The notes: generated from the letters alone by a model not told the origin. A DNA stretch of 23,538 nucleotides from a virus (IMGVR_UViG_3300035698_004682:1-23538), one strand, 5' to 3'; shown: positions 1,727 to 22,454, numbered from the stretch's first letter. A program made the numbers and translations.

Positions 1727-1771
1727 ACTCATTTATGTTCTCATAGACACAGATCACGTCTCATAAATGCT
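1727..1771. repeat. Dispersed element copy 1 (TGTTCTCATAGACACA...GTCTCATAAATGCT)
   Basis: Shares TATGTTCTCATAGACACA at its left and GTCTCATAAATGCT at its right with copy 2 near 1898-1943; the middle differs in length by 2 bp. Here the ends also form an inverted repeat, CATTTATG and CATAAATG. It contains the octamer TGTTCTCA (1736-1743) seen in nearly all gaps of this phage. Confidence 0.8.
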
Positions 1772-1821
1772 TAAAACGTCAAAACTGGACGATATTTAAT
1801 ATTCCTTGGCATATTTGAATG

Positions 1822-1841
1822 AAATTGCGCGTGTCATAAAT
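1822..1841. repeat. Partial copy of the dispersed element
   Basis: AAATTGCGCGTGTCATAAAT matches the right half of copy 2 (AAATTGCGCGTCTCATAAAT) with one mismatch; the left half (TGTTCTCATAGAC) is not preserved. Confidence 0.7.
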
Positions 1842-1844
1842 ATA

Positions 1845-1876
1845 GGGAAAAACCGTCATATCGTTAAATATGACGG
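1845..1876 (-). terminator. Intrinsic terminator of left-arm unit 1
   Basis: On the minus strand CCGTCATAT, loop TTAACG and ATATGACGG make a perfect 9-bp stem, followed by TTTTTCCC. It stands just after the last gene of unit 1 (47-aa protein) and would stop transcription before unit 2. Its loop TTAACG is the same as in the hairpins at 12187 and in the duplicated 85-bp cassette. Confidence 0.8.
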
Positions 1877-1897
1877 CTTCCGGGGATAAGCTTGTTC

Positions 1898-1943
1898 GGT
1901 ATTATGTTCTCATAGACACAAATTGCGCGTCTCATAAATGCTA
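1898..1943. repeat. Dispersed element copy 2
   Basis: Second full copy of the element at 1727-1771, again beginning with a TATTATG-TTCTCATAGACACA block and ending GTCTCATAAATGCT. It touches the stop codon of the 47-aa gene. TCTCATA occurs twice in it, 22 bp apart (20 bp apart in copy 1), close to two helical turns, as expected for tandem protein-binding sites. Confidence 0.8.
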
Positions 1944-2084
1944 AGCTTTAATGAAAAGAGGGTCTGAATTTTTCCAGAATATGTATGATAGTTTAGAGAA
2001 TATCATGCCGTTACGCCTCTCCTTCATTCTAGAAAAACTTATCGTCGCAAGGCTCTCTTTCTTTCCAAGTGAGAATATGTTCAT
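1941..2084 (-). CDS. Hypothetical small basic protein, 47 aa
   Basis: ATG at 2084-2082 sits in the same leader as two neighbouring genes (ACGGAGTTAAGACA against ACGGAGCTAAAACA), within the duplicated 85-bp cassette. That shared leader is the main reason to call it. The product begins MNIFSLGKKESLAT and is rich in Lys, Arg, Phe and Ser, with no known domain. An open frame on the + strand (1951-2139) overlaps it but has no ribosome binding site. Last gene of unit 1, followed by the terminator. It could also be a decayed gene left behind by the cassette duplication. Confidence 0.55.
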   Translation of the reverse strand: MNIFSLGKKESLATISFSRMKERRNGMIFSKLSYIFWKNSDPLFIKA

Positions 2085-2166
2085 TGTCTTAACTCCGTTT
2101 GTTACCTTGCATTATTACAAGCTAATGAAGCGGCGTTAACCGCTCCATATGTTTATAATATTACGG
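2082..2166 (-). repeat. 85-bp intergenic cassette, copy A
   Basis: Matches copy B (2526-2610) at 81 of 85 positions by eye; the 56 bases at the high-coordinate end (start of the cassette on the minus strand) are identical. On the minus strand it begins with the last codons and stop of the upstream gene (CCGTAA). It continues with the hairpin GGAGCGG-TTAACG-CCGCTTC and ends with ribosome binding site and start codon of the next gene. Confidence 0.93.
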
Positions 2167-2280
2167 CATGATTATAATTAGAATTAATGCAACCACAGCT
2201 ATTAAACCTACAATGCTTAAATCTCTTTTAAATCGTTTCTGCTCTTTTTGCTCAATATATTTATATGCTTGGTATGTCAT
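2161..2280 (-). CDS. Small membrane protein, 39 aa
   Basis: ATG at 2280-2278 overlaps the TGA of the 83-aa gene (ATGA), a classic translational-coupling arrangement. The N-terminal half is charged and probably helical (MTYQAYKYIEQKEQKRFKRD). The C-terminal half is one hydrophobic segment of about 18 residues (SIVGLIAVVALILIIIMP). This is a tail-anchored topology with the charged part likely cytoplasmic. No family recognised. Its stop codon is already inside cassette copy A. Confidence 0.7.
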   Translation of the reverse strand: MTYQAYKYIEQKEQKRFKRDLSIVGLIAVVALILIIIMP

Positions 2281-2528
2281 TTTAATTCCCTGTTTTCTAA
2301 AAATTCATGTTTATGCACGTTTATATCCCGCGCGCTTTGCTTAAAACCGTTGATAAACAAATAGTTTATTGCGTCATCTACAAGGTCAAAACTCCACAAC
2401 GTATGTTTACCTTTACTGTATTCGTCACTCACTAGAAACTGAGTTCCTGAGATATTCCACCAATAGTGTAATTCCTCGCTAGTAATACCGTGTATACCCC
2501 ATATTGTGTTTAATTTTACTGTTTTCAT
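2277..2528 (-). CDS. Hypothetical protein, 83 aa
   Basis: ATG at 2528 follows ACGGAGCTAAAACA. The product starts MKTVKLNTIWGIHGIT and carries aromatic-rich beta-like stretches (HYWWNISGTQFLVSDEY, HTLWSFDLVDDAINYLF). It ends in a charged tail and seems to be a small soluble domain. It shares its first four residues (MKTV) and its leader with the 311-aa gene upstream, which fits duplication of the intergenic segment. Function unknown. Confidence 0.75.
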   Translation of the reverse strand: MKTVKLNTIWGIHGITSEELHYWWNISGTQFLVSDEYSKGKHTLWSFDLVDDAINYLFINGFKQSARDINVHKHEFLENRELK

Positions 2529-2610
2529 TGTTTTAGCTCCGTTTATTATCTTGCATTATTACAAGCTAATGAAGCGGCGTTAACCGCTCCATATGTTTAT
2601 AATATTACGG
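2526..2610 (-). repeat. 85-bp intergenic cassette, copy B
   Basis: Second copy of the cassette at 2082-2166, lying between the 311-aa and 83-aa genes. It again runs from the stop codon of the upstream gene (CCGTAA) to the start codon of the next one. The four differences from copy A are all within the last 29 bases before the start codon. Confidence 0.93.
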
Positions 2611-3540
2611 GTATATATTCAGCTCCCTGGCGCAAGCTTCGATTTGATCCCATTCGATATAATGGCACGCCGCTTTTACATTGCCTTTTTTATCAACACT
2701 ATCAATCGTATAATGTCCTAATTTAACAATATTAGCCGCGTTCTTTTTAAACTCACATTTTGCTTCTCTCATACGTCTAATTAAAAGAAAAGCAAGCTTA
2801 GCATCTACAATAGGGAAATTTGCATTTTTTGACGTCTCAATGATGCCACGTTCTAAGTTAACACGCATTAAAGTTTTATTAAGGCCGCGGATACTCTCGC
2901 CCGGCTTTAAAGTATTCGAGCGCCATTTATCCGCGTTCTTTAAAAGTTGTTTTTGAATAGCGGCGTTTTGTCTATCATTTTTAATTTTAGCCTTGGCCAA
3001 TACGTCGCTGAAGGTTGCTAAAATGTCCGTTGCATCATTCTTTAACTCAGAAATGGCACGCTCTAATTTAACAGGTGGTTTTTTATTAAAGTGATTAAAT
3101 ATTGATCGAGCGTTTTTTAAATCCCAAATAGCAGAACCAACGTCATTATGCTTCAAATCTATTTTACGTCTTTTCGTTGCATTTTTTAAATGCTCATCGC
3201 GACTATCAAAAGCGTGTTTAATAAGTTCATCTTGAAACGATTTGTCAAACTTATTTGATATTAAAAAAACGTTTAGTAATTGAGTAGGAATGTAGAATTT
3301 TTTATAATGCAATATAGCTCCGCGTAATTCTTCTTGATGCGCGCTTGTACTCATTGAATAACTTGATGAGTTAACAAAAGCGGTGTTATCGTCGATAAAA
3401 TGGCACATGGGGAAATAATGACCATATGAATAAATAGTTTTACCATTGAAAAATACACTACCATTATTGGTGCGGCCTTGATCGTTTGATTGCTGCGCAT
3501 ATACGTGCATACACTCATTATTGTTGAATACTGTTTTCAT
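2605..3540 (-). CDS. Phage protein of unknown function, 311 aa
   Basis: Start ATG at 3540 follows ACGGAGCTAAAACA. The N-terminus (CMHVYAQQ about 10-17, IYSYGHYFPMCHF about 36-48, then YSMSTSAHQ about 61-69) fits a pattern I know from many uncharacterised phage and plasmid proteins: a WAQQ-like block, then YSYGxHFP and a YSxTTxxH block. The C-terminal 37 residues (GHYTIDSVDKKGNVKAACH, then YIEW) match the end of that family, which usually reads G(H/D)YxIDxxxxxGxxxAGCH. The middle (about 100-250) is Lys-rich and helical. Conserved His and Cys residues could bind metal, but no activity is known. First gene of left-arm unit 1. Confidence 0.85.
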   Translation of the reverse strand: MKTVFNNNECMHVYAQQSNDQGRTNNGSVFFNGKTIYSYGHYFPMCHFIDDNTAFVNSSSYSMSTSAHQEELRGAILHYKKFYIPTQLLNVFLISNKFDKSFQDELIKHAFDSRDEHLKNATKRRKIDLKHNDVGSAIWDLKNARSIFNHFNKKPPVKLERAISELKNDATDILATFSDVLAKAKIKNDRQNAAIQKQLLKNADKWRSNTLKPGESIRGLNKTLMRVNLERGIIETSKNANFPIVDAKLAFLLIRRMREAKCEFKKNAANIVKLGHYTIDSVDKKGNVKAACHYIEWDQIEACARELNIYP

Positions 3541-3682
3541 TGTTTTAGCTCCGTTTTATATAAGTTATCATGCGATATTGCATGGCTCATCCATTTAATA
3601 TACAGTAAAGTAAGAACATTACAACAATAAAAATCAGTCGAAGTGAGATTAAATAACTAATTACTACGTTTTAGGGAAAAAT
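3541..3682. promoter_or_regulatory. Divergent control region between left-arm unit 1 and small terminase
   Basis: Contains, for the minus strand, the octamer TGTTCTTA (3618-3611) in the longer string ATGTTCTTACTTTA. That string is repeated exactly before the scaffold gene (9525-9538). It also holds the near-palindrome CATGCGATATTGCATG (3569-3584) in the leader of the 311-aa gene, a plausible operator. For the + strand I see only a ribosome binding site (AGGGAAAA) before 3683 and no clear promoter. Confidence 0.5.
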
Positions 3683-4177
3683 ATGGAATTGTTCAAATCT
3701 GATATGAATAAAATTAGGGGTGCTAAAACCCAAGGCGAGATCATCCAGCGCCTATATAATAGGTATAATTTAAACGAAATATGCGCCGATTTGCGATTAA
3801 ATCCCGCCGCCGTTGCGCTTGTACGCCGCGATGACGTTGCGTTTGATAATGAGATACGCGAGGCGCAAGCGTTCTGCGTGGATATGATGACAGATAGGCT
3901 AGAACATATCGAAGATGAGGAAGAAAACCCTATCATGGCAAAGGTTATCAGTGAGAATATAAAGTGGCTAGCTTCTAAACGCTTGAAGCAGATATATGGA
4001 GATAAGGTAGAGATCAACCATAATCATACTATCAATATACAAGATGCAATGATTGAGGCGCGCAATAGAACTATGAACATTATAGACCATAAGCCATTGA
4101 AAACTATAGACGCTCCGACTGATAGCATATCAGTCGAAGTGATAGAACAAGTGGACGAGATCGACTGTTTATCCTGA
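3683..4177 (+). CDS. terS: Terminase small subunit
   Basis: 164 residues, directly before the large terminase as usual. Residues about 17-50 can form the DNA-binding helix-turn-helix (QGEIIQRLYNRYNLNEI, then CADLRLNPAAVALVRRD). The stretch about 92-109 (NIKWLASKRLKQIYGDKV) is the conserved block of Sf6-type small terminases (RKWxAxKxxPKxYGDK). The protein forms the ring that recognises packaging DNA and hands it to the large subunit. The acidic C-terminus (VEVIEQVDEIDCLS) may contact the motor. Unlike the following genes it is separated from its partner by a 317-bp gap. Start ATG is preceded by AGGGAAAA. Confidence 0.88.
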   Translation: MELFKSDMNKIRGAKTQGEIIQRLYNRYNLNEICADLRLNPAAVALVRRDDVAFDNEIREAQAFCVDMMTDRLEHIEDEEENPIMAKVISENIKWLASKRLKQIYGDKVEINHNHTINIQDAMIEARNRTMNIIDHKPLKTIDAPTDSISVEVIEQVDEIDCLS

Positions 4178-4200
4178 TATATCAATGACTTAGCGGCGAA

Positions 4201-4248
4201 GGGGTGGGGGCATACCCCCCATACCCCCAAAATCCCAGCCCACCCTCC
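4201..4248. other. G/C-rich hairpin with minus-strand G-quadruplex motif
   Basis: GGGGTGGGGG-CATA-CCCCC begins a strong hairpin. It is followed by five C-tracts at 4215-4220, 4224-4228, 4234-4236, 4239-4241 and 4243-4245. On the minus strand these read as five runs of three or more G with loops of 1, 2, 5 and 3 bases, which satisfies the usual quadruplex rule. It stands out sharply against the AT-leaning DNA around it. Confidence 0.75.
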
Positions 4249-4306
4249 AAAGTTTGCACCCCCTATACACAAATTTAATGAATTTTTTTCCGTAAGAATT
4301 TTCTTC

Positions 4307-4335
4307 TTGACACAACGCCAGCTGTCCAATACGGT
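4307..4335 (+). promoter_or_regulatory. Possible promoter with consensus -35
   Basis: A perfect TTGACA (4307-4312) is followed after 17 bp by a poor -10 (TACGGT, 4330-4335). It would start a transcript near 4342 that meets the hairpin at 4381. Weak call because of the -10. Confidence 0.3.
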
Positions 4336-4380
4336 CGAAATGCGCCTAATAGAGAAGAGTACCAATAAGTATTATTACCG

Positions 4381-4413
4381 AAAACCGCTGTGCAGAAATG
4401 TACGGCGGTTTTT
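4381..4413 (+). terminator. Probable intrinsic terminator before large terminase
   Basis: AAAACCGC (4381-4388) pairs with GCGGTTTT (4405-4412) around a 16-nt loop, and the right arm runs into TTTTTGTT. It would end transcripts from small terminase or from the possible promoter at 4307. Confidence 0.6.
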
Positions 4414-4449
4414 GTTCCTACTTGACCGATCCGACCGATCCGTGTAATT

Positions 4450-4457
4450 TGTTCTCA
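4450..4457 (+). promoter_or_regulatory. TGTTCTCA motif ahead of large terminase
   Basis: TGTTCTCA directly follows TAATT. It is one of ten intergenic occurrences of TGTTCT(C/T)A and lies about 40 bp before the start codon of the large terminase. Role not shown by sequence alone. Confidence 0.4.
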
Positions 4458-4494
4458 CTGAGAAATTTTAATTATATTTTTACAAAGGCTCGAA

Positions 4495-6039: not shown

Positions 6040-6542
6040 TATATTACACCGAAAGAGTTCAAGATTTATTCAACCTCGATGCGCTAGTCGATGCCCATGA
6101 GATATTTTTTAACGAAAGTATCTACAAGGACTTAACGTGGAACAGAGAAAACGCTAGACAATCTATTGAGAACATGATCCGCTCCGACGAAGAGGAGGTC
6201 ATAGCACTGTTCGCATTAGACAATGACTGCAAGAGCGAGGTCGTCGGGTTCTTCGAATACGGCTATGACAGCGCGTGGATGGACGAAGAGGTCGCAATGT
6301 GCGTGAACTTTTACATCGTCCCTTGGCATCACAGTGGACACTGTTCTCAGAAACTGCTAGATTTAGGAACAAGTTTGTGTCAGGATAGAGGTGCAAAATT
6401 AGCTTGGCAATCAAGCACTGCCGGATTTTCCGACAACGGTGTCAATGAACGAGCGTTTAGAATGTTCTTAAAGCGTAACGGTTTCGAAGAAGTCGGCGCA
6501 CTGTTGTTAAAGAGATTTGGAGAAGATAATGAGCAAGATTAA
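6036..6542 (+). CDS. GNAT-like acetyltransferase domain protein
   Basis: 168 residues with the GNAT layout: N-terminal helix pair (about 10-50), strand ending EVVGFFEYGY (about 68-77), then a central strand VNFYIVPWHHSGHCSQKLLD (90-109). Next come a helix (GTSLCQDRGAKLAWQSS) and the terminal ERAFRMFLKRNGFEEVG. In the acetyl-CoA loop, usually (Q/R)xxGx(G/A), this protein has HHSGHC, so the last small residue is Cys and the first is His. Activity is therefore uncertain. It starts inside the terminase stop codon (ATGA) and is translated in the late module. Phages of several kinds carry a GNAT-like gene beside terminase or portal; the substrate is unknown. Confidence 0.78.
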   Translation: MIYYTERVQDLFNLDALVDAHEIFFNESIYKDLTWNRENARQSIENMIRSDEEEVIALFALDNDCKSEVVGFFEYGYDSAWMDEEVAMCVNFYIVPWHHSGHCSQKLLDLGTSLCQDRGAKLAWQSSTAGFSDNGVNERAFRMFLKRNGFEEVGALLLKRFGEDNEQD

Positions 6543-7059: not shown

Positions 7060-7061
7060 TC

Positions 7062-8690
7062 ATGAGCGACGAGATTGCTGTTGAAGTTTTAGAAAGATAT
7101 TCCAAGGCGAAATCAAATCGCATGAATTGGGATAGTTATTGGCAAGAGGTATCTGAATATGTGATGCCCAACATGTCGAACACTTTCTTTGAAGAAGGTC
7201 ATTCGATGTCGAAGGCCCAGAAGAAAGATGGTAAGCGTTTTGACGGTTCGGCAGAGACAGCATTAGATCGCCACACTTCCGCAATGGAGAGTATGCTGAC
7301 GCCAAGAAATTCTCGTTGGCATGGAATTTCAACTGACAATACTGATCTGAATAAAATCCGTAGAGTTAGAGAATGGTACGATCTGGCCACGGACATTTTG
7401 TTTAAGTATCGTTATGCTTCTAAAGCAAACTTCTCTTCACAAATATATGAACACTACCAGTCATTAGGTGCGTTCGGGACAGGTGCAACTTATGTCGATA
7501 AGTTATCGCCGAAAGGTTTCCGCTATGCGCACGTTCATATTGCTCAAATCTTTTTCTACGAAAATCACCAAGGGCAAATTGACGAAGCGATCCGTGGTAA
7601 AATTAAAATCAGTGCGCGTAACGCGGTGTCTCAATTCACTGAGCCAGATGGTACAAATTCTTTACCTGAAGAAATATTAAAAGCTGCAATCGACGAACCA
7701 ACCAGACTGTTTGACTTTATCCATTGCGTTAAGCCGAACCCGAACATCGATGGCGAAGCGAGAGACTATCGCGGTATGCCGTTCTTATCTTTCTACGTTT
7801 CAGTAAAACATAGCGCGACCGTTTTGATAGAAGGTTTCAATACCTTCCCTTATATTATTTCTCGATACGTCACAGCGCCGGGCGAAGTTTACGGACGTTC
7901 ACCTGCGATGAAAGCTCTGACAAATATCAAAGTTTTAAATCAACAAAAGAAAACAATGTTGAAGCAAGGGCATCGAGCAGTTGATCCAGTTCTTCTGGCG
8001 CACGACGACGGTGTTCTGGACAGCTTCTCATTGAAGCCCGGATCGATCAACACAGGCGCGATGACAGGAGACGGAAAACGTCTCGTCGATGTTCTGCCGA
8101 CAGGTAATGTTAATGTTGGCGATGCGATGATGAACATCGAGCGTGAAGAAATTGCCGCCGCGTTCATGACGGACTTATTCCAAATCTTTATGGATCGCCC
8201 TCAAATGACAGCGACAGAAGTTACCGAACTCGCAAGAGAAAAAGGTATTCTTTTATCACCGATCATGGGTCGCCAAGAAAGCGAGTTCTTAGGGCCGATG
8301 ATTGAGCGAGAAATGGACTTGGCACAGATGCAGGGTTTGCTTCCGCCACCACCGCCAGAATTAATTGAAGCAGGCGGCGAATACCAAACGATATTTGACA
8401 ACCCTTTAGCGCGCGCGCAAAAAGCAGAACAAGCAGCTGGTCTAATGAGAACAGTTGGATGGGCGGCAGAAATTGCCGGGATCACTCAGAACCCAGAACC
8501 TCTGGATCATTTCGAGTGGGACACCATCATCCCAGAATTATCACTCATTCAAGCTGTACCTAGCAAATGGATGGTAACAGCTGAGAAGTTGAAAGGTATT
8601 CGCGCCGGTCGTGAACAAGCCGCAGCAACTCAGCAAGTAATTGAAGCTGGCCCGACAATCGCGGCCATCACTAAACAACAACAAAGCTAA
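7062..8690 (+). CDS. Portal protein (head-to-tail connector)
   Basis: 542 residues, typical for the podovirus head-tail connecting family. The N-terminus has RYSKAKSNRMNWDSYWQEV (12-30), then the GAFGTGATYVD segment. The C-terminal half contains the signature MDRPQMTATEVTELAREKG, where TATEV is diagnostic, followed by a proline stretch (LPPPPPEL). Twelve copies form the ring at one capsid vertex through which DNA enters and leaves and to which the tail is attached. It follows the previous stop by only 2 bases; the ribosome binding site is weak (TTAGG), so coupling is likely. Confidence 0.97.
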   Translation: MSDEIAVEVLERYSKAKSNRMNWDSYWQEVSEYVMPNMSNTFFEEGHSMSKAQKKDGKRFDGSAETALDRHTSAMESMLTPRNSRWHGISTDNTDLNKIRRVREWYDLATDILFKYRYASKANFSSQIYEHYQSLGAFGTGATYVDKLSPKGFRYAHVHIAQIFFYENHQGQIDEAIRGKIKISARNAVSQFTEPDGTNSLPEEILKAAIDEPTRLFDFIHCVKPNPNIDGEARDYRGMPFLSFYVSVKHSATVLIEGFNTFPYIISRYVTAPGEVYGRSPAMKALTNIKVLNQQKKTMLKQGHRAVDPVLLAHDDGVLDSFSLKPGSINTGAMTGDGKRLVDVLPTGNVNVGDAMMNIEREEIAAAFMTDLFQIFMDRPQMTATEVTELAREKGILLSPIMGRQESEFLGPMIEREMDLAQMQGLLPPPPPELIEAGGEYQTIFDNPLARAQKAEQAAGLMRTVGWAAEIAGITQNPEPLDHFEWDTIIPELSLIQAVPSKWMVTAEKLKGIRAGREQAAATQQVIEAGPTIAAITKQQQS

Positions 8691-8705
8691 TAAGGAGAAA
8701 CTAAA

Positions 8706-9450: not shown

Positions 9451-9454
9451 AAAA

Positions 9455-9533
9455 CCGATCTGCGGAATTAGGAACATTGGCAAGGAGAAAACCAGATTAA
9501 TGTTTCACGTCGCAGACCGGAATTATGTTCTTA
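9455..9533 (+). ncRNA. Structured RNA leader before the scaffold gene
   Basis: Two nested stems can form. The outer one is CCGATCTGCG (9455-9464) with CGCAGACCGG (9511-9520), 9 of 10 pairs. The inner one is GGAACATT (9471-9478) with AATGTTTC (9499-9506), including one G-U pair. It is followed at once by ATGTTCTTAC, also present in the capsid leader. The region (9451-9560) holds no supported gene. No U-tract follows, so it is not a terminator. Likely a cis-acting element of the scaffold mRNA. Confidence 0.45.
9526..9533 (+). promoter_or_regulatory. TGTTCTTA motif before scaffold gene
   Basis: Part of ATGTTCTTACTTTA (9525-9538), a 14-base string found identically on the minus strand ahead of left-arm unit 1 (3604-3617). 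Follows the -10-like AATTAT and lies about 30 bp before the scaffold start codon. Confidence 0.45.
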
Positions 9534-9560
9534 CTTTAACCCAATACAGGAGATTACTCA

Positions 9561-10559: not shown

Positions 10560-10634
10560 TAGGAACACGCTTGCAATGTTCTTACAATTCGGCTACGATG
10601 GGTACGTTATTTGACAACCCCTCGTGGCCGAATT
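10560..10634 (+). ncRNA. Structured RNA leader before the capsid gene
   Basis: Two adjacent hairpins. The first is TAGGAACA (10560-10567) with TGTTCTTA (10577-10584): 8 pairs, one G-U, 9-nt loop. The second is AATTCGGCTACGATGGG (10586-10602) with CCCCTCGTGGCCGAATT (10618-10634): 17 positions with one G-U and one mismatch, 15-nt loop. No U-tract follows either. The first hairpin contains the octamer TGTTCTTA. It starts one base after the scaffold stop codon and sits in a 195-bp non-coding gap before the most highly expressed gene, so a role in mRNA stability or translation is a fair guess. Confidence 0.52.
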
Positions 10635-10754
10635 TCATTTCTACATATTCATCGACCCCTTTCTAGGATAAGTCGGAAGCGCGTAACTGGCTTTCTAACA
10701 GTTGCACAACTCGTTTTCAGACAATTAACTTAGAAAAAAAGGATAAGTATTAAA
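10635..10754 (+). promoter_or_regulatory. Rest of the capsid-gene leader
   Basis: Holds a weaker hairpin, GGAAGC (10675-10680) with GCTTTC (10690-10695), and the short inverted repeat AGTTG-CA-CAACT (10700-10711). An A-rich run with ribosome binding site AAGGA follows, unusually far (about 11 nt) from the capsid ATG. No gene and no clear promoter seen. Confidence 0.35.
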
Positions 10755-11657
10755 ATGAACGATTTCATCACAACTGCATTTGTGCAGGATTACAAGACAA
10801 CTGTTATGATGTTGTCTCAACAAATGGGTTCAAAACTGCGACCACTTGTTACAATGGATACATACACTGGTAAAGCGGGTAAAGCCGTGGAGCAATTTGG
10901 TTCGACAAAAGCTGTGAAGCGGACGTCTCGCCATGCCGATACTCCTGCGCTTGACGTTCCTCAGTTCGCACGTTGGGTTTACCCGACTGATTACGAATGG
11001 GCTGCTTTGGTAGATGACCAAGACAAACTCCGTATGGCTATCGATCCTACTTCGCCAATCGCCCAAGCTGGCGCAATGGCAATGGGTCGCGCAATGGATG
11101 ACACCATTTTAGGTGCGTTCTACGGCACAGCTAAAACAGGCGAGAACGGCACAGAGAATACTGTGTTCGATACTGGTCAAGTTGTTGGAGTAAATGTTGG
11201 TGGAACAGCGTCTGGTCTGAACGTAGCAAAACTACGTGAAGCAAAACGTATCTTGATGGCGAACAATGTCGATCTCGACATGGAACCGGTTCACTGCGTT
11301 ATCACTTCTGCGGAACACGATAGCTTACTGAATGAAATCCAGATTATCAGCACGGACTTTAATGACCGTCCTGTTTTAGTCGAAGGGCGAGTAAAGTCTT
11401 TCTTAGGAATTTCTTTCACCGTCATGGAGTTCAATGACACGACAGCGTTTGACAATGCGGGAGACATGCTTAATTCTACTAACCGTCTCGTGCCTTTGTT
11501 CACTCCTAAAGCCATGCACTTAGGCTTGTGGAATGATACAGAAGCTCGCATCACAGAACGTGACGACAAAGGTTATGCGACGCAGGTTTACCTACGTAGC
11601 ACAGTCGGTTCGACGCGTGTTGACGAGAAACGCATTATTCAGATCGAATGCGCCTAA
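10755..11657 (+). CDS. Major capsid protein
   Basis: 300 residues, the expected size for an HK97-fold coat protein of podoviruses without a cleaved delta domain. The N-terminal segment (MNDFITTAFVQDYKTTVMML) is helical. Beta-rich core blocks follow: PQFARWVYPTDYEWAALVDD, a spine-helix-like MAMGRAMDDTILGAFYG, then KLREAKRILMANNVDLD. The end (KGYATQVYLRSTVGSTRVD, RIIQIECA) is typical of the family in BPP-1-like phages. Position after the scaffold gene supports the call. Flanked by a structured leader and a hairpin, so it may be a separately controlled message. Confidence 0.94.
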   Translation: MNDFITTAFVQDYKTTVMMLSQQMGSKLRPLVTMDTYTGKAGKAVEQFGSTKAVKRTSRHADTPALDVPQFARWVYPTDYEWAALVDDQDKLRMAIDPTSPIAQAGAMAMGRAMDDTILGAFYGTAKTGENGTENTVFDTGQVVGVNVGGTASGLNVAKLREAKRILMANNVDLDMEPVHCVITSAEHDSLLNEIQIISTDFNDRPVLVEGRVKSFLGISFTVMEFNDTTAFDNAGDMLNSTNRLVPLFTPKAMHLGLWNDTEARITERDDKGYATQVYLRSTVGSTRVDEKRIIQIECA

Positions 11658-11712: not shown

Positions 11713-11720
11713 TGTTCTTA
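11713..11720 (+). promoter_or_regulatory. TGTTCTTA motif before the decoration-like gene
   Basis: TGTTCTTA after AATATT, about 28 bp before the start codon at 11748. Another member of the intergenic octamer set. Confidence 0.4.
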
Positions 11721-12176: not shown

Positions 12177-12186
12177 AAAATAAAAT

Positions 12187-12238: not shown

Positions 12239-12246
12239 TGTTCTCA
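12239..12246 (+). promoter_or_regulatory. TGTTCTCA motif overlapping the start of the 67-aa gene
   Basis: TGTTCTCA reads into the ATG at 12246, after ribosome binding site AAGGA. It is in the set of ten intergenic octamers but may be partly explained by the start codon. Confidence 0.3.
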
Positions 12247-12751: not shown

Positions 12752-12760
12752 GTTTATATA

Positions 12761-13870: not shown

Positions 13871-13892
13871 CAGACATAGGTTAGGTAAAAGT

Positions 13893-14456
13893 ATGACTTC
13901 AATAACTGGAATTTGCAACAGAGGACTTCAAGGGTTAGGCGCAGCCCGTATCCTCGATATTAGTGACGACACGCGCAATGGGAGAGCTTGTAACGCGTCA
14001 TATAATTCTGTCCGCAGAGCAGAGCTGAGAAAACACACTTGGCGGTTTTCAATTACCAGAGAAGTTTTAGCTCCTTTAACAGAAACTGATCCTCACGGAG
14101 AATACGCTTATGTTTTTCAACTGCCGGCCAAATGTCTTCGTGTGATAAAACCGAAAGACCCATACTTGGATTGGCACATTGAAGGACGGAAATTATACAC
14201 CAGTTTGTCTAATGTTCTTAAACTAAAGTATATAAAAGATGAAGAAGACCCTGACCAGTTTGACGCGCTATTTGCAGAGCTATTATCCTCCGCGATGTCA
14301 CTAGAATTGTGCGAAGAAATAACAGGATCAAATTCTAAAAAAGAAATATTATTAGGAGAATATCGTCGAGCAATATCTGAAGCAAAACGGATGAACGCTT
14401 TTGAAACTATTCCCGCAGAGCCAGAAGAAGATAGCTGGCTGTTGGCGAGGTTATAA
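13893..14456 (+). CDS. Tail tubular protein A-like (tail adaptor)
   Basis: 187 residues, close to T7 gp11. The N-terminus (ICNRGLQGLGAARILDISDD) and SYNSVRRAELRKHTWRFSIT (about 37-56) match the family motif: LxxLGA-R-I, a Cys before Y...R...LR-HxWxFA. YVFQLPAKCLRVI (about 73-85) is also typical. Twelve copies attach to the portal and hold the nozzle. RBS is weak (TTAGGTAAAAG). Two bases separate it from tail tubular B, so they are probably translated together. Confidence 0.9.
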   Translation: MTSITGICNRGLQGLGAARILDISDDTRNGRACNASYNSVRRAELRKHTWRFSITREVLAPLTETDPHGEYAYVFQLPAKCLRVIKPKDPYLDWHIEGRKLYTSLSNVLKLKYIKDEEDPDQFDALFAELLSSAMSLELCEEITGSNSKKEILLGEYRRAISEAKRMNAFETIPAEPEEDSWLLARL

Positions 14457-14458
14457 CT

Positions 14459-16795
14459 ATGCCAACAATAACCCCTATCCAAAGCAGTTTTAATGCAGGA
14501 GAAATTAGCCCTCTTATTTATTCAAGAGTTGATTTCCCGAAGTATGAAAAAGCAGCAACCCTTCTCCAAAACTTTGTTGTTCAAGTCCAAGGAGGAATGA
14601 CACGTCGGACAGGATCGTACCGTAATACAAATACCCTCGGCAATAACCAAGCAAGACTTATCGAATTTGTGTTTTCGACAGGTGACACTTTTATGTTGGA
14701 ATTTTCGGACTTGAAGGTACGATTTCATCGCGATCGAGCGCCTGTTTATGAAACGGCGCAAGATATATCCGGCGTTACCAACGCTGACCCCGGCGTGGTA
14801 ACTTATGTCGGAGCAGACTACGCCGACGGAGAAGAAGTAAACTTGCGCGATATCGTCGGCATGACGCAACTTAATGATAGAAAGTTTATAGTGGCCAACG
14901 TTGATACTAGCGCGAACACTTTTGAGATTACCGACCTACAAGGCGATGACGTTGATACAACAGGGTACGACGTTTATTCAAGCGCAGGTAGCGTCGAAGC
15001 GGTTTATGAGATCGCTTCGCCATATACTTTAGCGCAGATACCTTTTCTTCGAACATTACAATCGCGCGACGTTCTATATATCGCTCACCCAGACCATCCA
15101 CCTCAAAAGTTATCGAGGTCAGCAGTTACATCTTGGGCGTTCGCGGATATAGTGTTTTCAGACGGCCCTTACCAAAAAGCGAATGACACAGACACCACTC
15201 TAACAAGTAACACTTCCACCCATGGCACAGCCACTTATACTGCGTCGTCGACAGTTGGAATAAACGGTGGACAAGGGTTTTTATCTTCAGATGTTGGTCG
15301 TAAAATTCGTCGCAGATCAGCAGTAACTACCGGGTGGCAGTTCGCCGTTATCACCACGGTTAACAGTACCACGTCGGTAGTAGTGGATATAGACACTGAC
15401 AGCCCTTCAGTTTTTGCGTCGACAGCTTCTAAAAACTGGCGTCTCGGAGAATGGGGAGAGACAAACGGGTATCCTTCCATAGTGTTCTCATTTGAAGACC
15501 GTATCGGATGGGGAGCATCCCCGGCTGAGCCAGTGGCTTTGAACTTATCAAAAACAGGTGACTACGAAAACTACGCGCCCTCTGCGCCGGAAGACGGTCT
15601 GGTGACAGCAGATAGTGCGCTTCAGCTTAAAGCAAATCAAAAAAGAAACGATCCGATAAGATGGGTATTCGATGATGAAAAAGGTCTTGTCTGTGGAACT
15701 AAAGGTGCAGAGTTCGTTGCTCGTTCAGGAACGACAGGCGCTGCCATGTCCGCTCTTAACTTTCCCGCTCTTCGTCGGTCTACTAAACGCGGTAGCTCCA
15801 CCGCCCAGCCTGTCGAAGTGGGAAAAGCAATTTTATTTATACAGTCCTCTAAAAGAAAGATAAGAGAGATTGCGTACTCCTACGATGTCGATGGGTTTCG
15901 CTCGCCTGACATTTCTGTCTTGGCCACACACGCGCTCAAACATGGCGCAGAAGAAATGGCCTTTCAGCAAGAACCCTACTCTATTGTCTGGGCAAGAACA
16001 GGAGACGGCAGTTTGTGGGCCGTTACTTACGAAAGAGAGCAAGATGTCATAGGGTGGCATCGTCACTCACTGGGCGGCGTATCGGACGTAAATGGAAACC
16101 CTCCTGTCATCGAGAGTATCGCGACCATGCCTTCCCCGGACGGAACACAAGACGATCTTTGGCTAATTGTTAAAAGATATATTAACGGCGAAGTCGTTCG
16201 GAACATTGAGTATTTAGGAGAGTTCAATGAGGATTACGATAGTGTCGCAGATTGTTATTTTGTTGACTGCGGAAAGACTATAGAAAACGTGTCGCCTTCC
16301 GACGTTGTTACGAATTTATATCACCTCGAAGGCGAAGTGCTTGACGTTTTAATAGATGGGAAACCTGAGCCAGAAGTTACTGTTGTCGACGGTCAAGTTT
16401 CCTTCACGAAGACAGGAACGAAAATTCACATCGGGTACGGATATAAATCGAGATTTAAAAGTGTCAGACCAGAAGGCGGATCGAGAAACGGAACGGCCCA
16501 AGCTAAGATAAAAAGAACGCATCGATTAGCTGGAAGATTTCACCAGACCGTCGGAGTGTGGGCAGGACGTAATTTTGAAGACGATCCGACCGATCCAGCT
16601 AAAATGGACGCTGCGGAATTTCGAGCAGGTAATCATCTTATGGGCACAGCAGTTCCGTTGTTCTCGGGAGATAAGCAGCTGGATTACGAAGGCGATTATA
16701 ATACAGACGGGTTCATTTGTTTAGAGACAAGGCAGCCACTTCCGTGTACTGTGTTAGGTTTAATGCCGCATACCGAAGTGGAGGACAGGCAATAA
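14459..16795 (+). CDS. Tail tubular protein B-like (tail nozzle)
   Basis: 778 residues, similar in size to T7 gp12. The start ITPIQSSFNAGEISPLIYSR (4-23) is the classic N-terminus (SFxxGExSPxLxGRxDxxxY). It continues KYEKAATLLQNFVVQVQGGM and TRRTGSYRNTNTL, also family signatures. Later blocks (IPFLRTLQSRDVLYIAHPDH, PPQKLSR; GYPSIVFSFEDRIGWGAS) are found in most homologues. The protein forms the hollow nozzle at the end of the short tail. Stop and next start overlap (TAATG). Confidence 0.95.
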   Translation: MPTITPIQSSFNAGEISPLIYSRVDFPKYEKAATLLQNFVVQVQGGMTRRTGSYRNTNTLGNNQARLIEFVFSTGDTFMLEFSDLKVRFHRDRAPVYETAQDISGVTNADPGVVTYVGADYADGEEVNLRDIVGMTQLNDRKFIVANVDTSANTFEITDLQGDDVDTTGYDVYSSAGSVEAVYEIASPYTLAQIPFLRTLQSRDVLYIAHPDHPPQKLSRSAVTSWAFADIVFSDGPYQKANDTDTTLTSNTSTHGTATYTASSTVGINGGQGFLSSDVGRKIRRRSAVTTGWQFAVITTVNSTTSVVVDIDTDSPSVFASTASKNWRLGEWGETNGYPSIVFSFEDRIGWGASPAEPVALNLSKTGDYENYAPSAPEDGLVTADSALQLKANQKRNDPIRWVFDDEKGLVCGTKGAEFVARSGTTGAAMSALNFPALRRSTKRGSSTAQPVEVGKAILFIQSSKRKIREIAYSYDVDGFRSPDISVLATHALKHGAEEMAFQQEPYSIVWARTGDGSLWAVTYEREQDVIGWHRHSLGGVSDVNGNPPVIESIATMPSPDGTQDDLWLIVKRYINGEVVRNIEYLGEFNEDYDSVADCYFVDCGKTIENVSPSDVVTNLYHLEGEVLDVLIDGKPEPEVTVVDGQVSFTKTGTKIHIGYGYKSRFKSVRPEGGSRNGTAQAKIKRTHRLAGRFHQTVGVWAGRNFEDDPTDPAKMDAAEFRAGNHLMGTAVPLFSGDKQLDYEGDYNTDGFICLETRQPLPCTVLGLMPHTEVEDRQ

Positions 16796-17295: not shown

Positions 17296-19338
17296 ATGCC
17301 TATATTACAAGTTTACGATCAACAGACTTCAGGAGCTAATACTCGTCTCAACGTCCGCGCAAATGCGGATAGTTTTGGTGGACAATCTGCGCAAGCTACC
17401 GGGCAGGCAGCAGGCCAAGTTCAACAAGTGGCCAATGAAAAATCTAAGATGCGAGCTGCCAGAGCTTTAACGGAAGCTGACTTAGATTGGCGTCGTAAAT
17501 TAATCGACATGCAAAACGATCCTGAGTTCGCTGAGAAATATGGTGAAGACGGATCGGGGTTTTCTGACGCGTTCAAAGAAGAGTTCGAAGGGTTTGCCAC
17601 TGAAGCAATCGGAGGGGCTGATCCTTACGCGAGAGAATATGTTGAAAAAGGAATGTATAACCTCGGCGAAAGTTTAATGTCTGCCAGCATGGATTATCAA
17701 GCGCAGGTAGCTTCTCAATTCGCAGTCGATACAGTGACGCAGAGTGTCGACAATGCTCGTCAAGCTGCCAATATGTCACCAGGTCAGTTCACGTCCATCT
17801 ACGCTAATGCTACGGCAGTTATCGACGAAGCAGAACACCTCAACCCAACTATGCGTCGTCGACTAAAAGACGGAGCGTTAGAGAACATAGCTCTCGGCGC
17901 AGCTTCAGGAATGTTGGAACGAGGGGAAGTAGGAACAGCGCACGCTATTAAGAACAATACTTTGAAGTTGAACATCGAAGAAGATGGAAAACTGGTTTCA
18001 AAATCGATAAGGGATATTGTCGACGAAGATACTTACAGCGCCCTCTCCGGTCAAGCGGAAAGTGTGTTGGCGAAAGCTCGTGCGCGTGCAAGAGAAGCTG
18101 TGACTTTACAGATAAATAATGTTCAAACTGAGCTAGAATTAGCAGAGACACCAGAAGAGTTTATGGCGGTTCAACAAAGTATCAAAGAGCTAGCACCTGC
18201 CCTTGGCCAGAAACAAATGAATGTGATGCGCGTTAAGTATCATAAGAAAACAAAAAATGTTCGTGAAGAAATCGACAGTGTTGACAGAGGTAATGCTTTC
18301 GCCACGGGGGGAGCGTACTTAAACCCTGCCGACAACAACGACATGAAAGATTTTAATAATTACTACGACGCTAACATCGATCCCGTCCTTGGAGAAATGG
18401 ACGTCGACGAGCGTAATACGCGCCTCGCCAATATGGTGTCCGAAACAAAAGTAATTCCTGATCGATTAAAAGGTGATATTAAAATCGCAGCGCGATCTCG
18501 TGACCCTGAGACAGTCGGCGCGGCAGCAGATTTTATTTCCAGAGTTGGAGATCGCAACCCGCATGTGCTTCAGGATTTCCCTGAGAAAGATTTAGCACGT
18601 ATCCGCATGGCGAACAATTTGCTAGCGGTCGGATATAATAAACAGGAAGCTTTTGATCGAGTAGATCAGACACTCGCTCCTGATAACGCCGCTGTGTACG
18701 AACGCCGCAAAGATGATTTAGACCAGTTGGCCAGAGGTAAGATCGCAGGGTTTGGTAAAAAAGATTACGAAAGCGATGCCGTTGATAATTTCAAAGCTAG
18801 TTTTCTGAAGAAACTTTTACCGGGTGATAGCGGAGAAGTTAAAGATTTAAAATCTAACTTCGCAACACGCCAAGTCGCTGAGCTGACCGCAGATTACAAG
18901 CAAGCTTTTGACAGCCACTACTTAATAACAGGTGATCCAGAGCTGTCTGACGTTCACGCAGGCGAAGTCGTTAGAAGCCAATACGCTGTGTCCGACATTA
19001 ATGGTAAAAACCAACTAATGCGCCACGCCCCTGAAGCTTATTACAGCATAGGAGGTAGCGATGATAAATGGATGCGCGAACAAGTGTTAACTCAAGCGAA
19101 CGAGGCGCTAGCGTCTGGGCTATCTCGCCCTGAAACTTCCGCAGAGAAAGACGTTATACTTGTTCCTGACGGGAGAGTTACACCACGTACAGCCAAAGAA
19201 GGTCGCCCTCTTTATAAGATGATGATAAAAGCTGAAGATGGGATGCTGCACGATCTGCTCGGACATGGTAAATATTTTGAGTTCGATCCTGCCGCTCGTA
19301 AAAAAGAGTTGATAGATGAAGCAAGAGAGGAGGAGTAA
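17296..19338 (+). CDS. Internal virion protein, T7 gp15-like, 680 aa
   Basis: Follows the gp14-like gene with the arrangement TAAATG. The N-terminus is Gln/Ala-rich (FGGQSAQATGQAAGQVQQVA). Most of the protein is predicted helical with many EA/RA words, as in gp15. It also has DLDWRRKLIDMQNDPEF and a GSGFSDAFKEEFEGFATEAI block, typical of these proteins in phages with the same module. In T7 gp15 forms the periplasmic part of the ejection tube with gp16. Length is near T7 gp15. No enzymatic motif is seen. Confidence 0.88.
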   Translation: MPILQVYDQQTSGANTRLNVRANADSFGGQSAQATGQAAGQVQQVANEKSKMRAARALTEADLDWRRKLIDMQNDPEFAEKYGEDGSGFSDAFKEEFEGFATEAIGGADPYAREYVEKGMYNLGESLMSASMDYQAQVASQFAVDTVTQSVDNARQAANMSPGQFTSIYANATAVIDEAEHLNPTMRRRLKDGALENIALGAASGMLERGEVGTAHAIKNNTLKLNIEEDGKLVSKSIRDIVDEDTYSALSGQAESVLAKARARAREAVTLQINNVQTELELAETPEEFMAVQQSIKELAPALGQKQMNVMRVKYHKKTKNVREEIDSVDRGNAFATGGAYLNPADNNDMKDFNNYYDANIDPVLGEMDVDERNTRLANMVSETKVIPDRLKGDIKIAARSRDPETVGAAADFISRVGDRNPHVLQDFPEKDLARIRMANNLLAVGYNKQEAFDRVDQTLAPDNAAVYERRKDDLDQLARGKIAGFGKKDYESDAVDNFKASFLKKLLPGDSGEVKDLKSNFATRQVAELTADYKQAFDSHYLITGDPELSDVHAGEVVRSQYAVSDINGKNQLMRHAPEAYYSIGGSDDKWMREQVLTQANEALASGLSRPETSAEKDVILVPDGRVTPRTAKEGRPLYKMMIKAEDGMLHDLLGHGKYFEFDPAARKKELIDEAREEE

Positions 19339-22300
19339 TGCCAGTTGTTACCGTAGACGACGAAACACTCCTCGGCGAACGCACAAATTATGATCGTGAA
19401 GTAGAACGCGATCCGACGTTTAAAGAATTATCAAGCGCTTATTTTGAGAATGAAAATTTGATTGCTAATATCGGTCAGCGTTTCGCTCGAACTCAACACG
19501 AAGCTGATCCTGAATACGACGTGTGGCAAGACATGGCCGGGTACGAAGGATACGCTGATCGATTTGTCGGCGTCGAGAGTAACATGGAAGCCTATGATAC
19601 AAAGCGCCGCATCGATGAAGAGTTAGAAAATAAAGCGACGATGGCAGCAGGCGGTGTTCAAGGCGTAGCGGCAGGACTTGCTGTTGGCATGACCGATCCC
19701 ACGATGCTAATACCTATCGGCGGAACGGCATATAAAACGTACCGTACTGGTGGGAGAATATTAGAGGGCGCAGCTAAGACGGCGCTCGCCACTGGTACTG
19801 TGCAGGTCGCTTCAGAGATAGCGTTACAAAACCTTCAGGAGACGCGCACAGCGGAAGAGAGCGCATGGAACATAGCAGGCGCTACATTTATCGGTGGCGT
19901 GATCGGAGGAGCAGCAGGCGCGTTCAGTAGTAAAGCTGAGATAAAGAAACTGGCCGCTCGCGTTGAGCAAGAAGATTTGAATTTGAATTACGTTGGTGAA
20001 ATGGGCGAGGTCAATGACGTCGGAGCGGCAGTTACACCGAAGACAACGAGCGCACAAGAAACATTAAAGAGCGCGGCCAAGTTAGAAAAAGTAATGTCGT
20101 TTCAAGACCCTGTTCTGAGAACATTAAACAGTGCGTCCACCGTTACACGTCGCCTATCTGAGAAGCTGGTCGAAACACCGTTGATTAAAAATAAGAACAC
20201 TGAAGGGATTGCCAGTGAGATTTCTGTTGAGAATAAAATTAAGAGTTATAACCTTCCTAAGTATAATTATTATAGAGCGCGTGATGAAATGTTCACGCAG
20301 TATCGAGGCACGAAAGGAACTATCCGCACGAAGTATGCAGATAAAGTCCTTGGCTCAGCTCGTAAGGACGGCAAGCTAACTTACAATGAGTTTAAAGTCG
20401 AAGTCGCAAAAGCAAACCGTCGAGGTGATGTTCACGAGATACCTGAAGTCGCAGCTGCGGCAAAGTTAAAACGTAAAGAAATTCTTGATCCATTATTCGA
20501 GAAAGCGAAACGCGTCGGATTGATCGATGAAGATGTCGCTAACCCCGGCACGGCGATCAGCTATTTAAATAGGTTATACGATCACCAAATGATTAAAAAT
20601 AATCTACCAGAGTTCAGAGCGTTGAATGCTAAATGGTTAAAACAAAAACGAGATATTGCTAGCCGCGATTTAGACGCTGCGGTCTTAGCGAACAAGTTGA
20701 GCGAAACGACAGAAGAGATCGAGAAGTTACGCCGTCGAGCTGGACGAGCTGACGCTGAGATCGATGACATTTCTTACCAGCTGACGGATCGTATCTTAGG
20801 AACTCCTTCAGGGAGATTAGCTTATGACGGCATCGATCAACCAAGTCTAGGCGGAGCAGGTAAACCAGGCGCACGAGGCCCAGCTAAAGCTCGCGTGTAC
20901 GACATACCTGACGAAATGATCGAGAAGTTTTTAATCAGTGATGATGACTTTTTAACAGAAGCGTACATTCATTCCTTGGCCTCTGACGTAGAACTTAAAT
21001 CTACCTTTGGCTCATTAGACCCAGAAGATGTTCTCAAAGAAATCCAAGACGATTACTCTAATATTTCAGCTAAAGTAACTGACCCGAAACAATCGTTGAA
21101 GTTAAAGCAAGCTCAAGACAATGACCTGCGCGATTTCAAAGCTATGTGGGAAAGATTACGCGGCGTGTACGGACACAACGGCGGCGATGATTACGCCACC
21201 ACAGCGAAGAGCTTAGAGCGCACAGCGATGAACTGGAACTACCTTGCGATGTTAGGCGGGATGACACTATCTGCGTTCCCTGACATTGCTCGCCCCGTTA
21301 TGGTGAACGGTTTGAGACGAACAGTTGGTGACGGCCTAGTGTCGATGGCGACCGATTGGAAAGGTTTTAAAGCAGCAGCTGGCGAAGTGCTAGAAGCAGG
21401 AACAGCTCTTGACATGGCGCTCCATTCTCGCGCCAGAGCGATCGCAGGGTTTGACGATTTTGTGCCGTTCTCTAATCGCGTCGAGGGGGTTGTCGGAAAC
21501 TTGGCCAATGACTTTGGCGTCGTATCTTTGATGTCGCCTTGGAACGCTTCGATGAAACAATTCTCAGGTGTCATTACGCAGTCTCGTCTTCTTAAAGCCG
21601 CTAATAAGTTAGGCCAAGGGAAAAAGATTAGTGGAAAAGAAATAGAAAATTTAGCAGCTAACTTTATCGACGAAGGGATGGCTAAACGGATTGCTAAACA
21701 GTTCAGTGAGCATGGAGACGACACTGGTAAAACGCTAGTTCCTAACGCGCGCAAATGGACAGACCGTAAAGCTCAAGAAACTTTTAGAGCTGCGATCCGC
21801 CGTGAAGTAGATAAAACTATTGTGACCCCCGGACAAGACAAACCGTTATGGCTGTCGCGATCTGGGTGGCGTCTTATGGGGCAGTTCAGATCGTTCGCTT
21901 TCGGATCGATGCAGCGAACCACTTTGTCAGGGCTTCAGCAGCGAGACATGGCGGTGTTAAACGGAGTGGCTTTGGCTACGGCGCTAGGAACGATGTCATA
22001 TATCATGAAGTCGAAAGCTGCCGGATACGAACCTGATTTCGATCCAAGGAACTTATTTGCTGAAGGCATTGACCGATCTGGTTTGACGGGATGGATGATG
22101 GACGCTAACAACATCGCAGAGAAAGTATCCCGTGGCCGCGTCGGGGTTAACGCTGTTCTCGGCGGCCCTGTCATGTCGCGTTACGCTAGTCGCTCTGCGT
22201 TAGAAGCAGTGTTCGGCCCGACATACGGCCAGATGGGGAATGCGCTTCAGATCACAGGCTCTGCTTTCGCAGGTGATTGGAAAGCCACAGACACCCATAC

Positions 22301-22403
22301 CGTCCGCCGGATGATGCCTTACCAAAATTTAATATACATGCGTTCTATTTTCGACGAAGCTGAAGAGGGAATAAATTCTACCCTTGGCGTTCAAGGTCGA
22401 TGA
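19338..22403 (+). CDS. Internal virion protein, T7 gp16-like, 1021 aa
   Basis: Starts in the previous stop (TAATG) with a strong site (GAGAGGAGGAG). Hydrophobic, Gly/Ala-rich stretches at about 101-127 (AAGGVQGVAAGLAVGM) and 178-196 (NIAGATFIGGVIGGAAGAF) could enter a membrane, with TDPTMLIPIGG between them. This order is familiar from gp16-like proteins. The C-terminal third is conserved too (WLSRSGWRLMGQFRSFAFGS, then ALATALGTMSYIM). It is shorter than T7 gp16 (about 1300 aa), and I do not find an N-terminal lytic transglycosylase motif. In T7 the homologue crosses the inner membrane and pulls DNA in. Followed by a promoter and the fibre gene. Confidence 0.88.
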   Translation: MPVVTVDDETLLGERTNYDREVERDPTFKELSSAYFENENLIANIGQRFARTQHEADPEYDVWQDMAGYEGYADRFVGVESNMEAYDTKRRIDEELENKATMAAGGVQGVAAGLAVGMTDPTMLIPIGGTAYKTYRTGGRILEGAAKTALATGTVQVASEIALQNLQETRTAEESAWNIAGATFIGGVIGGAAGAFSSKAEIKKLAARVEQEDLNLNYVGEMGEVNDVGAAVTPKTTSAQETLKSAAKLEKVMSFQDPVLRTLNSASTVTRRLSEKLVETPLIKNKNTEGIASEISVENKIKSYNLPKYNYYRARDEMFTQYRGTKGTIRTKYADKVLGSARKDGKLTYNEFKVEVAKANRRGDVHEIPEVAAAAKLKRKEILDPLFEKAKRVGLIDEDVANPGTAISYLNRLYDHQMIKNNLPEFRALNAKWLKQKRDIASRDLDAAVLANKLSETTEEIEKLRRRAGRADAEIDDISYQLTDRILGTPSGRLAYDGIDQPSLGGAGKPGARGPAKARVYDIPDEMIEKFLISDDDFLTEAYIHSLASDVELKSTFGSLDPEDVLKEIQDDYSNISAKVTDPKQSLKLKQAQDNDLRDFKAMWERLRGVYGHNGGDDYATTAKSLERTAMNWNYLAMLGGMTLSAFPDIARPVMVNGLRRTVGDGLVSMATDWKGFKAAAGEVLEAGTALDMALHSRARAIAGFDDFVPFSNRVEGVVGNLANDFGVVSLMSPWNASMKQFSGVITQSRLLKAANKLGQGKKISGKEIENLAANFIDEGMAKRIAKQFSEHGDDTGKTLVPNARKWTDRKAQETFRAAIRREVDKTIVTPGQDKPLWLSRSGWRLMGQFRSFAFGSMQRTTLSGLQQRDMAVLNGVALATALGTMSYIMKSKAAGYEPDFDPRNLFAEGIDRSGLTGWMMDANNIAEKVSRGRVGVNAVLGGPVMSRYASRSALEAVFGPTYGQMGNALQITGSAFAGDWKATDTHTVRRMMPYQNLIYMRSIFDEAEEGINSTLGVQGR

Positions 22404-22432
22404 TTGCGTTTTGTATTGTTCTCATGTAATAT
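22404..22432 (+). promoter_or_regulatory. Sigma70-type promoter for the tail fibre gene
   Basis: TTGCGT (22404-22409), 17-bp spacer, TAATAT (22427-22432): good spacing and a near-consensus -10. The octamer TGTTCTCA occurs twice, in the spacer (22417-22424) and overlapping and following the -10 (22432-22439), so the second would lie at the transcription start. The -35 begins just after the stop codon of the upstream gene. Confidence 0.6.
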
Positions 22433-22454
22433 GTTCTCATAAAGGAAAACCACT

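What the first reader, a model, noticed from the sequence alone, without database searches (positions are those of the whole stretch)
1736..22439. Phage-wide intergenic octamer TGTTCT(C/T)A
By eye I find this octamer ten times in about 1.4 kb of intergenic DNA: 1736, 1905, 3618-3611 (minus), 4450, 9526, 10577, 11713, 12239, 22417, 22432. It occurs only about three times on the + strand of all coding DNA (6342, 14213, 21029). It usually reads toward the next gene and often follows a -10-like hexamer (TAATAT, TATTAT, TGTAAT, AATTAT). The minus-strand copy shares 14 bases (ATGTTCTTACTTTA) with the copy before the scaffold gene. This could be an initiation/discriminator signature of a phage RNA polymerase, a sigma-like factor or an anti-termination site.
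Basis: partly seen in the sequence, partly recalled or inferred. Interest (0 to 1): 0.75.

Follow-up and report, generated by a model that had tools for sequence, protein, structure and literature searches.

The report
Dispersed strict octamer in podovirus lineage
An exact eight-letter DNA word, TGTTC followed by TC, TT or CT and then A, is scattered far above chance through this virus and two close relatives, in nearly every gap between genes and also inside genes on both strands, which looks more like landing sites for one viral control protein (probably a repressor) than like start signals for a viral RNA polymerase.

Summary
All ten reported sites are real, and the octamer is far from chance: 21 copies of TGTTCTYA against 2 expected. 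The picture is wider than reported. A third form, TGTTCCTA, belongs to the set. In the window these three forms number 28: 14 in 1.8 kb of intergenic DNA and 14 in 21.7 kb of coding DNA. The coding copies are also significantly enriched (TGTTCTYA 11 against 1.8 in synonymous-codon shuffles), lie on both strands and in all three reading frames, and the enrichment recurs in the only two close relatives found. Recognition is strict: other single-base variants are at or near background. Before the capsid gene all three phages keep two facing copies. T7 promoters give 14 intergenic, 0 coding, all one strand; Chi in P1 gives 0 intergenic, 27 coding; neither matches. Best explanation: a dispersed, asymmetric binding site for a lineage-specific phage regulator, probably a repressor, working like the P1 C1 operators or L5-type stoperators. 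The protein is not identified; two paralogous HTH-like genes beside a facing pair are candidates. The initiation/discriminator reading is weakened but not excluded.

The parts
1720..1743 (.). facing pair TAGGAACA-N8-TGTTCTCA upstream of the minus-strand HTH-like gene 1050-1622; overlaps a weak sigma-70-like promoter ATGAGA-17-TATAGT (1744-1716, minus)
1905..1912 (+). TGTTCTCA; lies in a 22-nt direct repeat of the 1736 copy (TTATGTTCTCATAGACACARAT)
3611..3618 (-). TGTTCTTA in the divergent gap 3541-3682, reading toward gene 2605-3540
4413..4420 (+). TGTTCCTA, just upstream of the -35-like TTGACC of the terminase-large promoter candidate
4450..4457 (+). TGTTCTCA; its first T is the last base of -10-like TAATTT (TTGACC-17-TAATTT), before terminase large gene 4495
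9469..9476 (-). TGTTCCTA upstream of the scaffold-like gene
9526..9533 (+). TGTTCTTA before scaffold-like gene 9561
10560..10584 (.). facing pair TAGGAACA-N9-TGTTCTTA before the major capsid gene; kept in L003 and L009 as TAAGAACA-N7-TGTTCTCA with TTGCA between the arms
10586..10634 (+). conserved RNA hairpin in the capsid mRNA leader right after the facing pair
   Evidence: z = -6.1 for the leader 10578-10760; 3 of 20 pairs changed on both sides in 3 sequences, 93% of cells paired
11713..11720 (+). TGTTCTTA after a hairpin and before gene 11748
12239..12246 (+). TGTTCTCA between the Shine-Dalgarno and the ATG of gene 12246
22417..22439 (+). two tandem TGTTCTCA copies, start to start 15 bp, before the gene at 22455; one in the spacer and one on the -10/+1 of TTGCGT-17-TAATAT
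6342..6371 (.). coding pair TGTTCTCA / TAGGAACA in the acetyltransferase-like gene; the first copy is kept in L003 at 1647
17930..17956 (-). coding direct pair TGTTCTTA-N11-TGTTCCTA
8446..8453 (-). coding copy in the portal gene, kept in L009 at 1652
6167..6174 (-). coding copy TGTTCTCA
6463..6470 (+). coding copy TGTTCTTA
14213..14220 (+). coding copy TGTTCTTA
15483..15490 (+). coding copy TGTTCTCA
20116..20123 (-). coding copy TGTTCTCA inside TGTTCTCAGAACA
20192..20199 (-). coding copy TGTTCTTA
21029..21036 (+). coding copy TGTTCTCA
22904..22911 (-). coding copy TGTTCTCA
1190..1197 (-). coding copy TGTTCCTA inside the HTH-like gene
1050..1622 (-). candidate regulator, 190 aa, HTH-like segment by eye; paralogue of 736-1023
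   Evidence: 25% identity over 52 aa, E 1e-4 for the single comparison; no Pfam, PHROG or phage match; structure model unusable
736..1023 (-). second candidate regulator, 95 aa

Best explanation
TGTTC(TC/TT/CT)A is an asymmetric, strictly read binding site for one DNA-binding regulator of this podovirus lineage, most likely a lysogeny-type repressor. One protein, or two acting together on neighbouring sites with loose spacing and orientation, sits on sites in almost every transcription-unit gap and blocks initiation where a site covers promoter elements (4450, 22432, 1720/1736, the pre-capsid pair). The coding and terminator-proximal copies would act as extra binding sites or roadblocks, so that late genes stay silent in the prophage. 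Shown by computation: presence, enrichment, strictness, coding and both-strand enrichment, recurrence in two relatives, and the kept pre-capsid pair. Inferred: that a protein binds, that it is phage-encoded, that the sign is repression, and that the phage is temperate.
For: TGTTCTCA is the most over-represented 8-mer by z-score over window+L003+L009 (21 vs 1.5); TGTTCCTA has 9 vs 0.64 and TGTTCTTA 12 vs 1.85. Gap density 7.7/kb vs 0.64/kb in coding, Fisher P 4e-9; 8 of 10 gaps carry a copy. Coding enrichment survives synonymous-codon shuffling in all three contigs (11 vs 1.81, 3 vs 0.17, 5 vs 0.79; none of 300 shuffles reaches the observed count); the reversed motif is not enriched. Coding copies lie in three frames and encode different peptides, so selection is on DNA. 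Single-base variants at the six fixed positions are at or near background. The facing pair before the capsid gene is kept in all three phages. Pairs within 25 bp inside genes: 2 vs 0.21 expected. A facing pair covers the promoter candidate of an HTH-like gene. A phage with similar head and tail genes is temperate: Tr60_Ab31 has an integrase and repressors. P1 C1 operators show the same kind of signal: TGCTCTAA 6 vs 0.79 in 50 kb. Near-perfect stoperators in Trixie are mainly in gaps with some in genes.
Against: No binding protein is identified; the candidates have no database match and no usable model. No integrase is seen, but the record is a 23.5-kb fragment. Known dispersed operators are longer (13 and 17 bp) than 8 bp. 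Spacing of the facing pair varies (7-9 bp) and pair clustering in gaps alone is at chance (3 vs 2.3). Only two close relatives, both short fragments, were found; phages at 56% portal or 54% capsid identity lack the motif. Stoperators elsewhere are oriented with transcription, whereas the coding copies here are not (6 sense, 8 antisense).
Confidence: 0.58

Rival explanations
1. Initiation/discriminator element: -10-like hexamer, then GTTCTY, then A at +1, read by a modified host RNA polymerase, a phage sigma or a phage RNA polymerase.
For: The hexamer ending at the first T scores above random gap hexamers (P 0.012), with TTGACC-17-TAATTT at 4450 and TTGCGT-17-TAATAT at 22432. The eight gap copies of TGTTCTYA with a clear downstream gene all read toward it. 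A kept RNA hairpin starts right after the pre-capsid copy.
Against: Coding copies are enriched on both strands. T7 promoters behave oppositely. No single-subunit RNA polymerase in the window or related phages. The 11713 and 12239 copies lack a -10; 12239 lies between the Shine-Dalgarno and ATG. The partner TGTTCCTA copies at 9469 and 10560 face backwards.
Confidence: 0.17
2. Binding site of a late-gene activator (P2 Ogr, P1 Lpa type) next to each late promoter.
For: Copies stand before most structural transcription units; -35 elements are mostly poor.
Against: Sites overlap -10/+1 or the spacer rather than lying upstream of -35; coding copies are not explained.
Confidence: 0.1
3. Host-imposed genome word, such as a Chi-like recombination octamer or an uptake sequence.
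For: Strict asymmetric octamer, both strands, enriched in coding DNA; in P1 the top octamer is E. coli Chi.
Against: Chi in P1 is 0 in gaps and 27 in genes, unlike the 12-fold gap bias here. None of 120 Pseudomonadota genomes comes near the window's density of TGTTCTCA (at most about 45 per Mb against about 550). The true host is unknown.
Confidence: 0.09
4. RNA signal: a boxA-like antitermination element (TGTTCTTA resembles nut boxA).
For: Resemblance recalled from memory; gap copies at 11713 and 12239 follow hairpins.
Against: 13 of 28 copies are on the minus strand and 8 of 14 coding copies are antisense; no Rfam match at gathering score.
Confidence: 0.06

Closest known systems
C1 repressor operators of phage P1
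   Same: Short asymmetric site, 22 copies dispersed over a phage genome, single or paired (Oc1ab), some inside genes, overlapping sigma-70 promoters and the repressor's own promoter (PMC8546580).
   Different: 17 bp ATTGCTCTAATAAATTT versus 8 bp; no C1 homologue in the window; no prophage state of any kind shown here.
Stoperators/operators of cluster A mycobacteriophages (L5, Trixie)
   Same: More than twenty asymmetric sites in promoters and short gaps, strict core, close phages differ in site, bound by a monomer (PMC9283540, PMC6550527; control).
   Different: 13 bp; orientation follows transcription, while the coding copies here have no preferred strand; no homologue of Trixie Rep in the window.
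T7-type late promoters
   Same: Present in most gaps before structural genes of a phage with T7-like head and tail genes.
   Different: T7 core 8-mer is 14 gap, 0 coding, one strand; this motif is 14 and 14, both strands; no RNA polymerase gene found.
Chi (GCTGGTGG)
   Same: Strict asymmetric octamer, enriched in coding DNA.
   Different: Chi in P1 avoids gaps (0 of 27).

Membership tests
Dispersed asymmetric phage operators (P1 C1 / stoperator kind) | many copies of one asymmetric site over the genome, concentrated in gaps | tested here: met
Dispersed asymmetric phage operators (P1 C1 / stoperator kind) | a phage repressor binds the site | not testable with these tools
   candidate genes 1050-1622 and 736-1023 have no assignable family
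L5-type stoperators | site orientation correlates with direction of transcription | tested here: inconclusive
   gap TGTTCTYA copies follow the next gene; partner TGTTCCTA and coding copies do not
L5-type stoperators | 13-bp site and homologue of the L5/Trixie repressor | tested here: not met
   8-bp site; no Trixie Rep match in the window fragment
P1 C1 operators | C1 homologue | tested here: not met
   no significant C1 match in the window fragment
Phage single-subunit RNA polymerase promoters | sites confined to gaps and to the transcribed strand | tested here: not met
   14 gap, 14 coding; 15 plus, 13 minus
Phage single-subunit RNA polymerase promoters | RNA polymerase gene in the phage | tested here: inconclusive
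   none in the fragment or related phages, but the genome is incomplete
Chi-like octamer | coding enrichment without gap bias; host genome enriched | tested here: not met
   12-fold gap bias; no enriched genome among 120 sampled, host unknown
nut boxA | sense-strand RNA element | tested here: not met
   both strands

The most novel reading that the evidence does not exclude
A lineage-specific, exact 8-bp DNA word that a podovirus keeps both in its gaps and inside its structural genes on both strands, read by an unrecognised regulator family (the paralogous HTH-like genes at 736 and 1050) as a genome-wide silencing or marking system distinct from C1 and stoperators.
Probability: 0.25. Interest if true: 0.7.

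Novelty: new variant of a known kind. Interest (0 to 1): 0.5.

Why it matters
Dispersed asymmetric operators are documented in few systems (P1-like phages and cluster A actinobacteriophages among those checked here). A case in environmental podoviruses with an 8-bp site and enriched coding copies would show that genome-wide silencing by a short strict word arose again elsewhere. It would also make the repressor of an uncultured phage findable from its sites alone. The codon-shuffle test used here separates promoter words from dispersed binding words and can be applied to any phage contig.

Tried and rejected
Promoter-only reading: rejected as the main reading after the coding and both-strand enrichment. 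Rigid dimer operator: rejected because gaps between arms vary from 7 to 9 and tandem pairs occur. Pair clustering in gaps: at chance. Distant relatives: TGTTC-rich clusters in L091 and L092 lie beside unrelated genes and are not the same motif. Other short gap words in relatives (GTTTAAAC, CGTGTAGA, TGTTACGC) look like conserved coding or terminator sequence, local clusters or iterons. Structure prediction of the two candidate regulators without an alignment: unusable (pLDDT 36 and 51). Searches for homologues of the candidate regulators: none. Scan for the 18-mer TATGTTCTCATAGACACA: no other viral contig. Motif is absent in L109 (56% portal identity) and at background or absent in L110-L113.

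Full report
What the window is. It is a 23.5-kb virus record (G000), a fragment of a phage with T7-like head and tail genes: terminase small (3683) and large (4495), portal (7062), scaffold-like (9561), major capsid (10755), tail tubular A-like (13893) and B (14459), and large genes (17296, 19338) in the position of internal virion proteins; leftward genes occupy 1-3540. The nearest annotated relative by terminase (48%) has a XerD-like recombinase. The more distant Tr60_Ab31, with a similar head and tail gene order, is temperate, with an integrase and repressors. Only two close relatives were found: L003 (9.2 kb) and L009 (9.4 kb), with about 68% portal and 81-82% capsid identity.

Observation. 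The ten sites are present. TGTTCTYA occurs 21 times against 2 expected. The motif is better written TGTTC(TC/TT/CT)A: 28 copies in the window, 14 in gaps and 14 in genes. Across the window, L003 and L009 the three forms number 21 vs 1.5, 12 vs 1.9 and 9 vs 0.6, and TGTTCTCA is the top 8-mer by z-score in an unbiased ranking. Single-base changes at the six fixed positions give counts at or near expectation, so the word is read exactly.

Coding copies. Against shuffles that keep each protein and its codon usage, coding copies of TGTTCTYA are 11 vs 1.81 (window), 3 vs 0.17 (L003) and 5 vs 0.79 (L009); no shuffle of 300 reaches the observed count, and the reversed word is not enriched. They fall in all three frames and encode different peptides, 6 sense and 8 antisense for the three forms together. 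Selection is therefore on the DNA and not bound to one strand.

Gap copies. Gap density is 7.7 per kb, coding 0.64 per kb (Fisher P 4e-9). Eight of ten gaps carry at least one copy. One gap without a copy, 2529-2604, holds one unit of an 87-bp duplicated sequence with a sigma-70-like promoter and ribosome site, so the octamer is not a general promoter part of this phage. The -10-like trend is weak (P 0.012) and good -35 partners exist only at 4450 and 22432.

The pre-capsid block. In all three phages a facing pair (TAGGAACA/TAAGAACA ... TGTTCTYA) surrounds a kept TTGCA and is followed by an RNA hairpin with three of 20 pairs changed on both sides. The leader folds well (z = -6.1). TTGCAN-17-TACNAT could be a sigma-70 promoter with the pair around its -35, but its -10 lies inside the hairpin, so the start site is open.

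Controls. The same counting gives: T7 promoter core 14 gap, 0 coding, one strand; Chi in P1 0 gap, 27 coding; the stoperator core in Trixie 6 gap, 12 coding with a mechanical gene caller, although with the annotated genes most near-perfect 13-mers lie in gaps; P1 C1 core TGCTCTAA 6 vs 0.79. The window motif (14, 14, both strands) resembles dispersed operators more than promoters or Chi.

Mechanism. The best reading is a dispersed asymmetric operator for a lineage-specific regulator, probably a repressor. Sites cover promoter candidates at 1720/1736, 4413/4450, 10560/10577 and 22417/22432. The pair at 1720/1736 covers a weak promoter candidate of the 190-aa gene 1050-1622, which shares an HTH-like segment with its neighbour 736-1023 (BLASTP E 1e-4). 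That would fit autoregulation, but neither protein has a database match and the models are unusable. Binding, sign and temperate lifestyle are inferences.

Known systems. P1 C1 (22 dispersed asymmetric operators, PMC8546580) and cluster A stoperators (PMC9283540, PMC6550527) are the closest in kind. Membership in either is not claimed: no C1 or Trixie Rep homologue is in the fragment, the site is shorter, and coding copies show no orientation.

Limits. The genome is incomplete and the host unknown; only two short close relatives exist in the collection, and beyond them the motif vanishes. Pairing in gaps is not above chance.

Noticed in passing
2080-2166 and 2524-2610: 87-bp direct repeat (95%) holding a sigma-70-like promoter, an AGCGGCGTTAACCGCT hairpin and a ribosome site; it implies an extra small minus-strand gene at 1941-2084. 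The same hairpin core recurs inverted at the terminator near 12182.
   Followed up: partly
1757-1771, 1822-1841, 1920-1942: Three copies of a second element, ATTTATGA(G/C)ACGYG on the minus strand, upstream of the HTH-like gene 1050-1622; possibly sites of another regulator.
   Followed up: no
10586-10634: Conserved long RNA hairpin with covarying pairs in the capsid mRNA leader, present in L003 and L009; the rest of the leader is also strongly folded.
   Followed up: partly
1-199: Minus-strand reading frame of five-residue repeats (NTGDW/NTGHS), cut off by the end of the window.
   Followed up: no
L092:3995-4088 and L054:1194-1279: Tandem iteron-like arrays (CACTCACGTTAGCGAT; TGTTACGC) in these relatives, possible origins or operator clusters.
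   Followed up: no
L106 (P1, first 50 kb): E. coli Chi is the most enriched 8-mer (27 vs 2.5), all copies in genes.
   Followed up: partly
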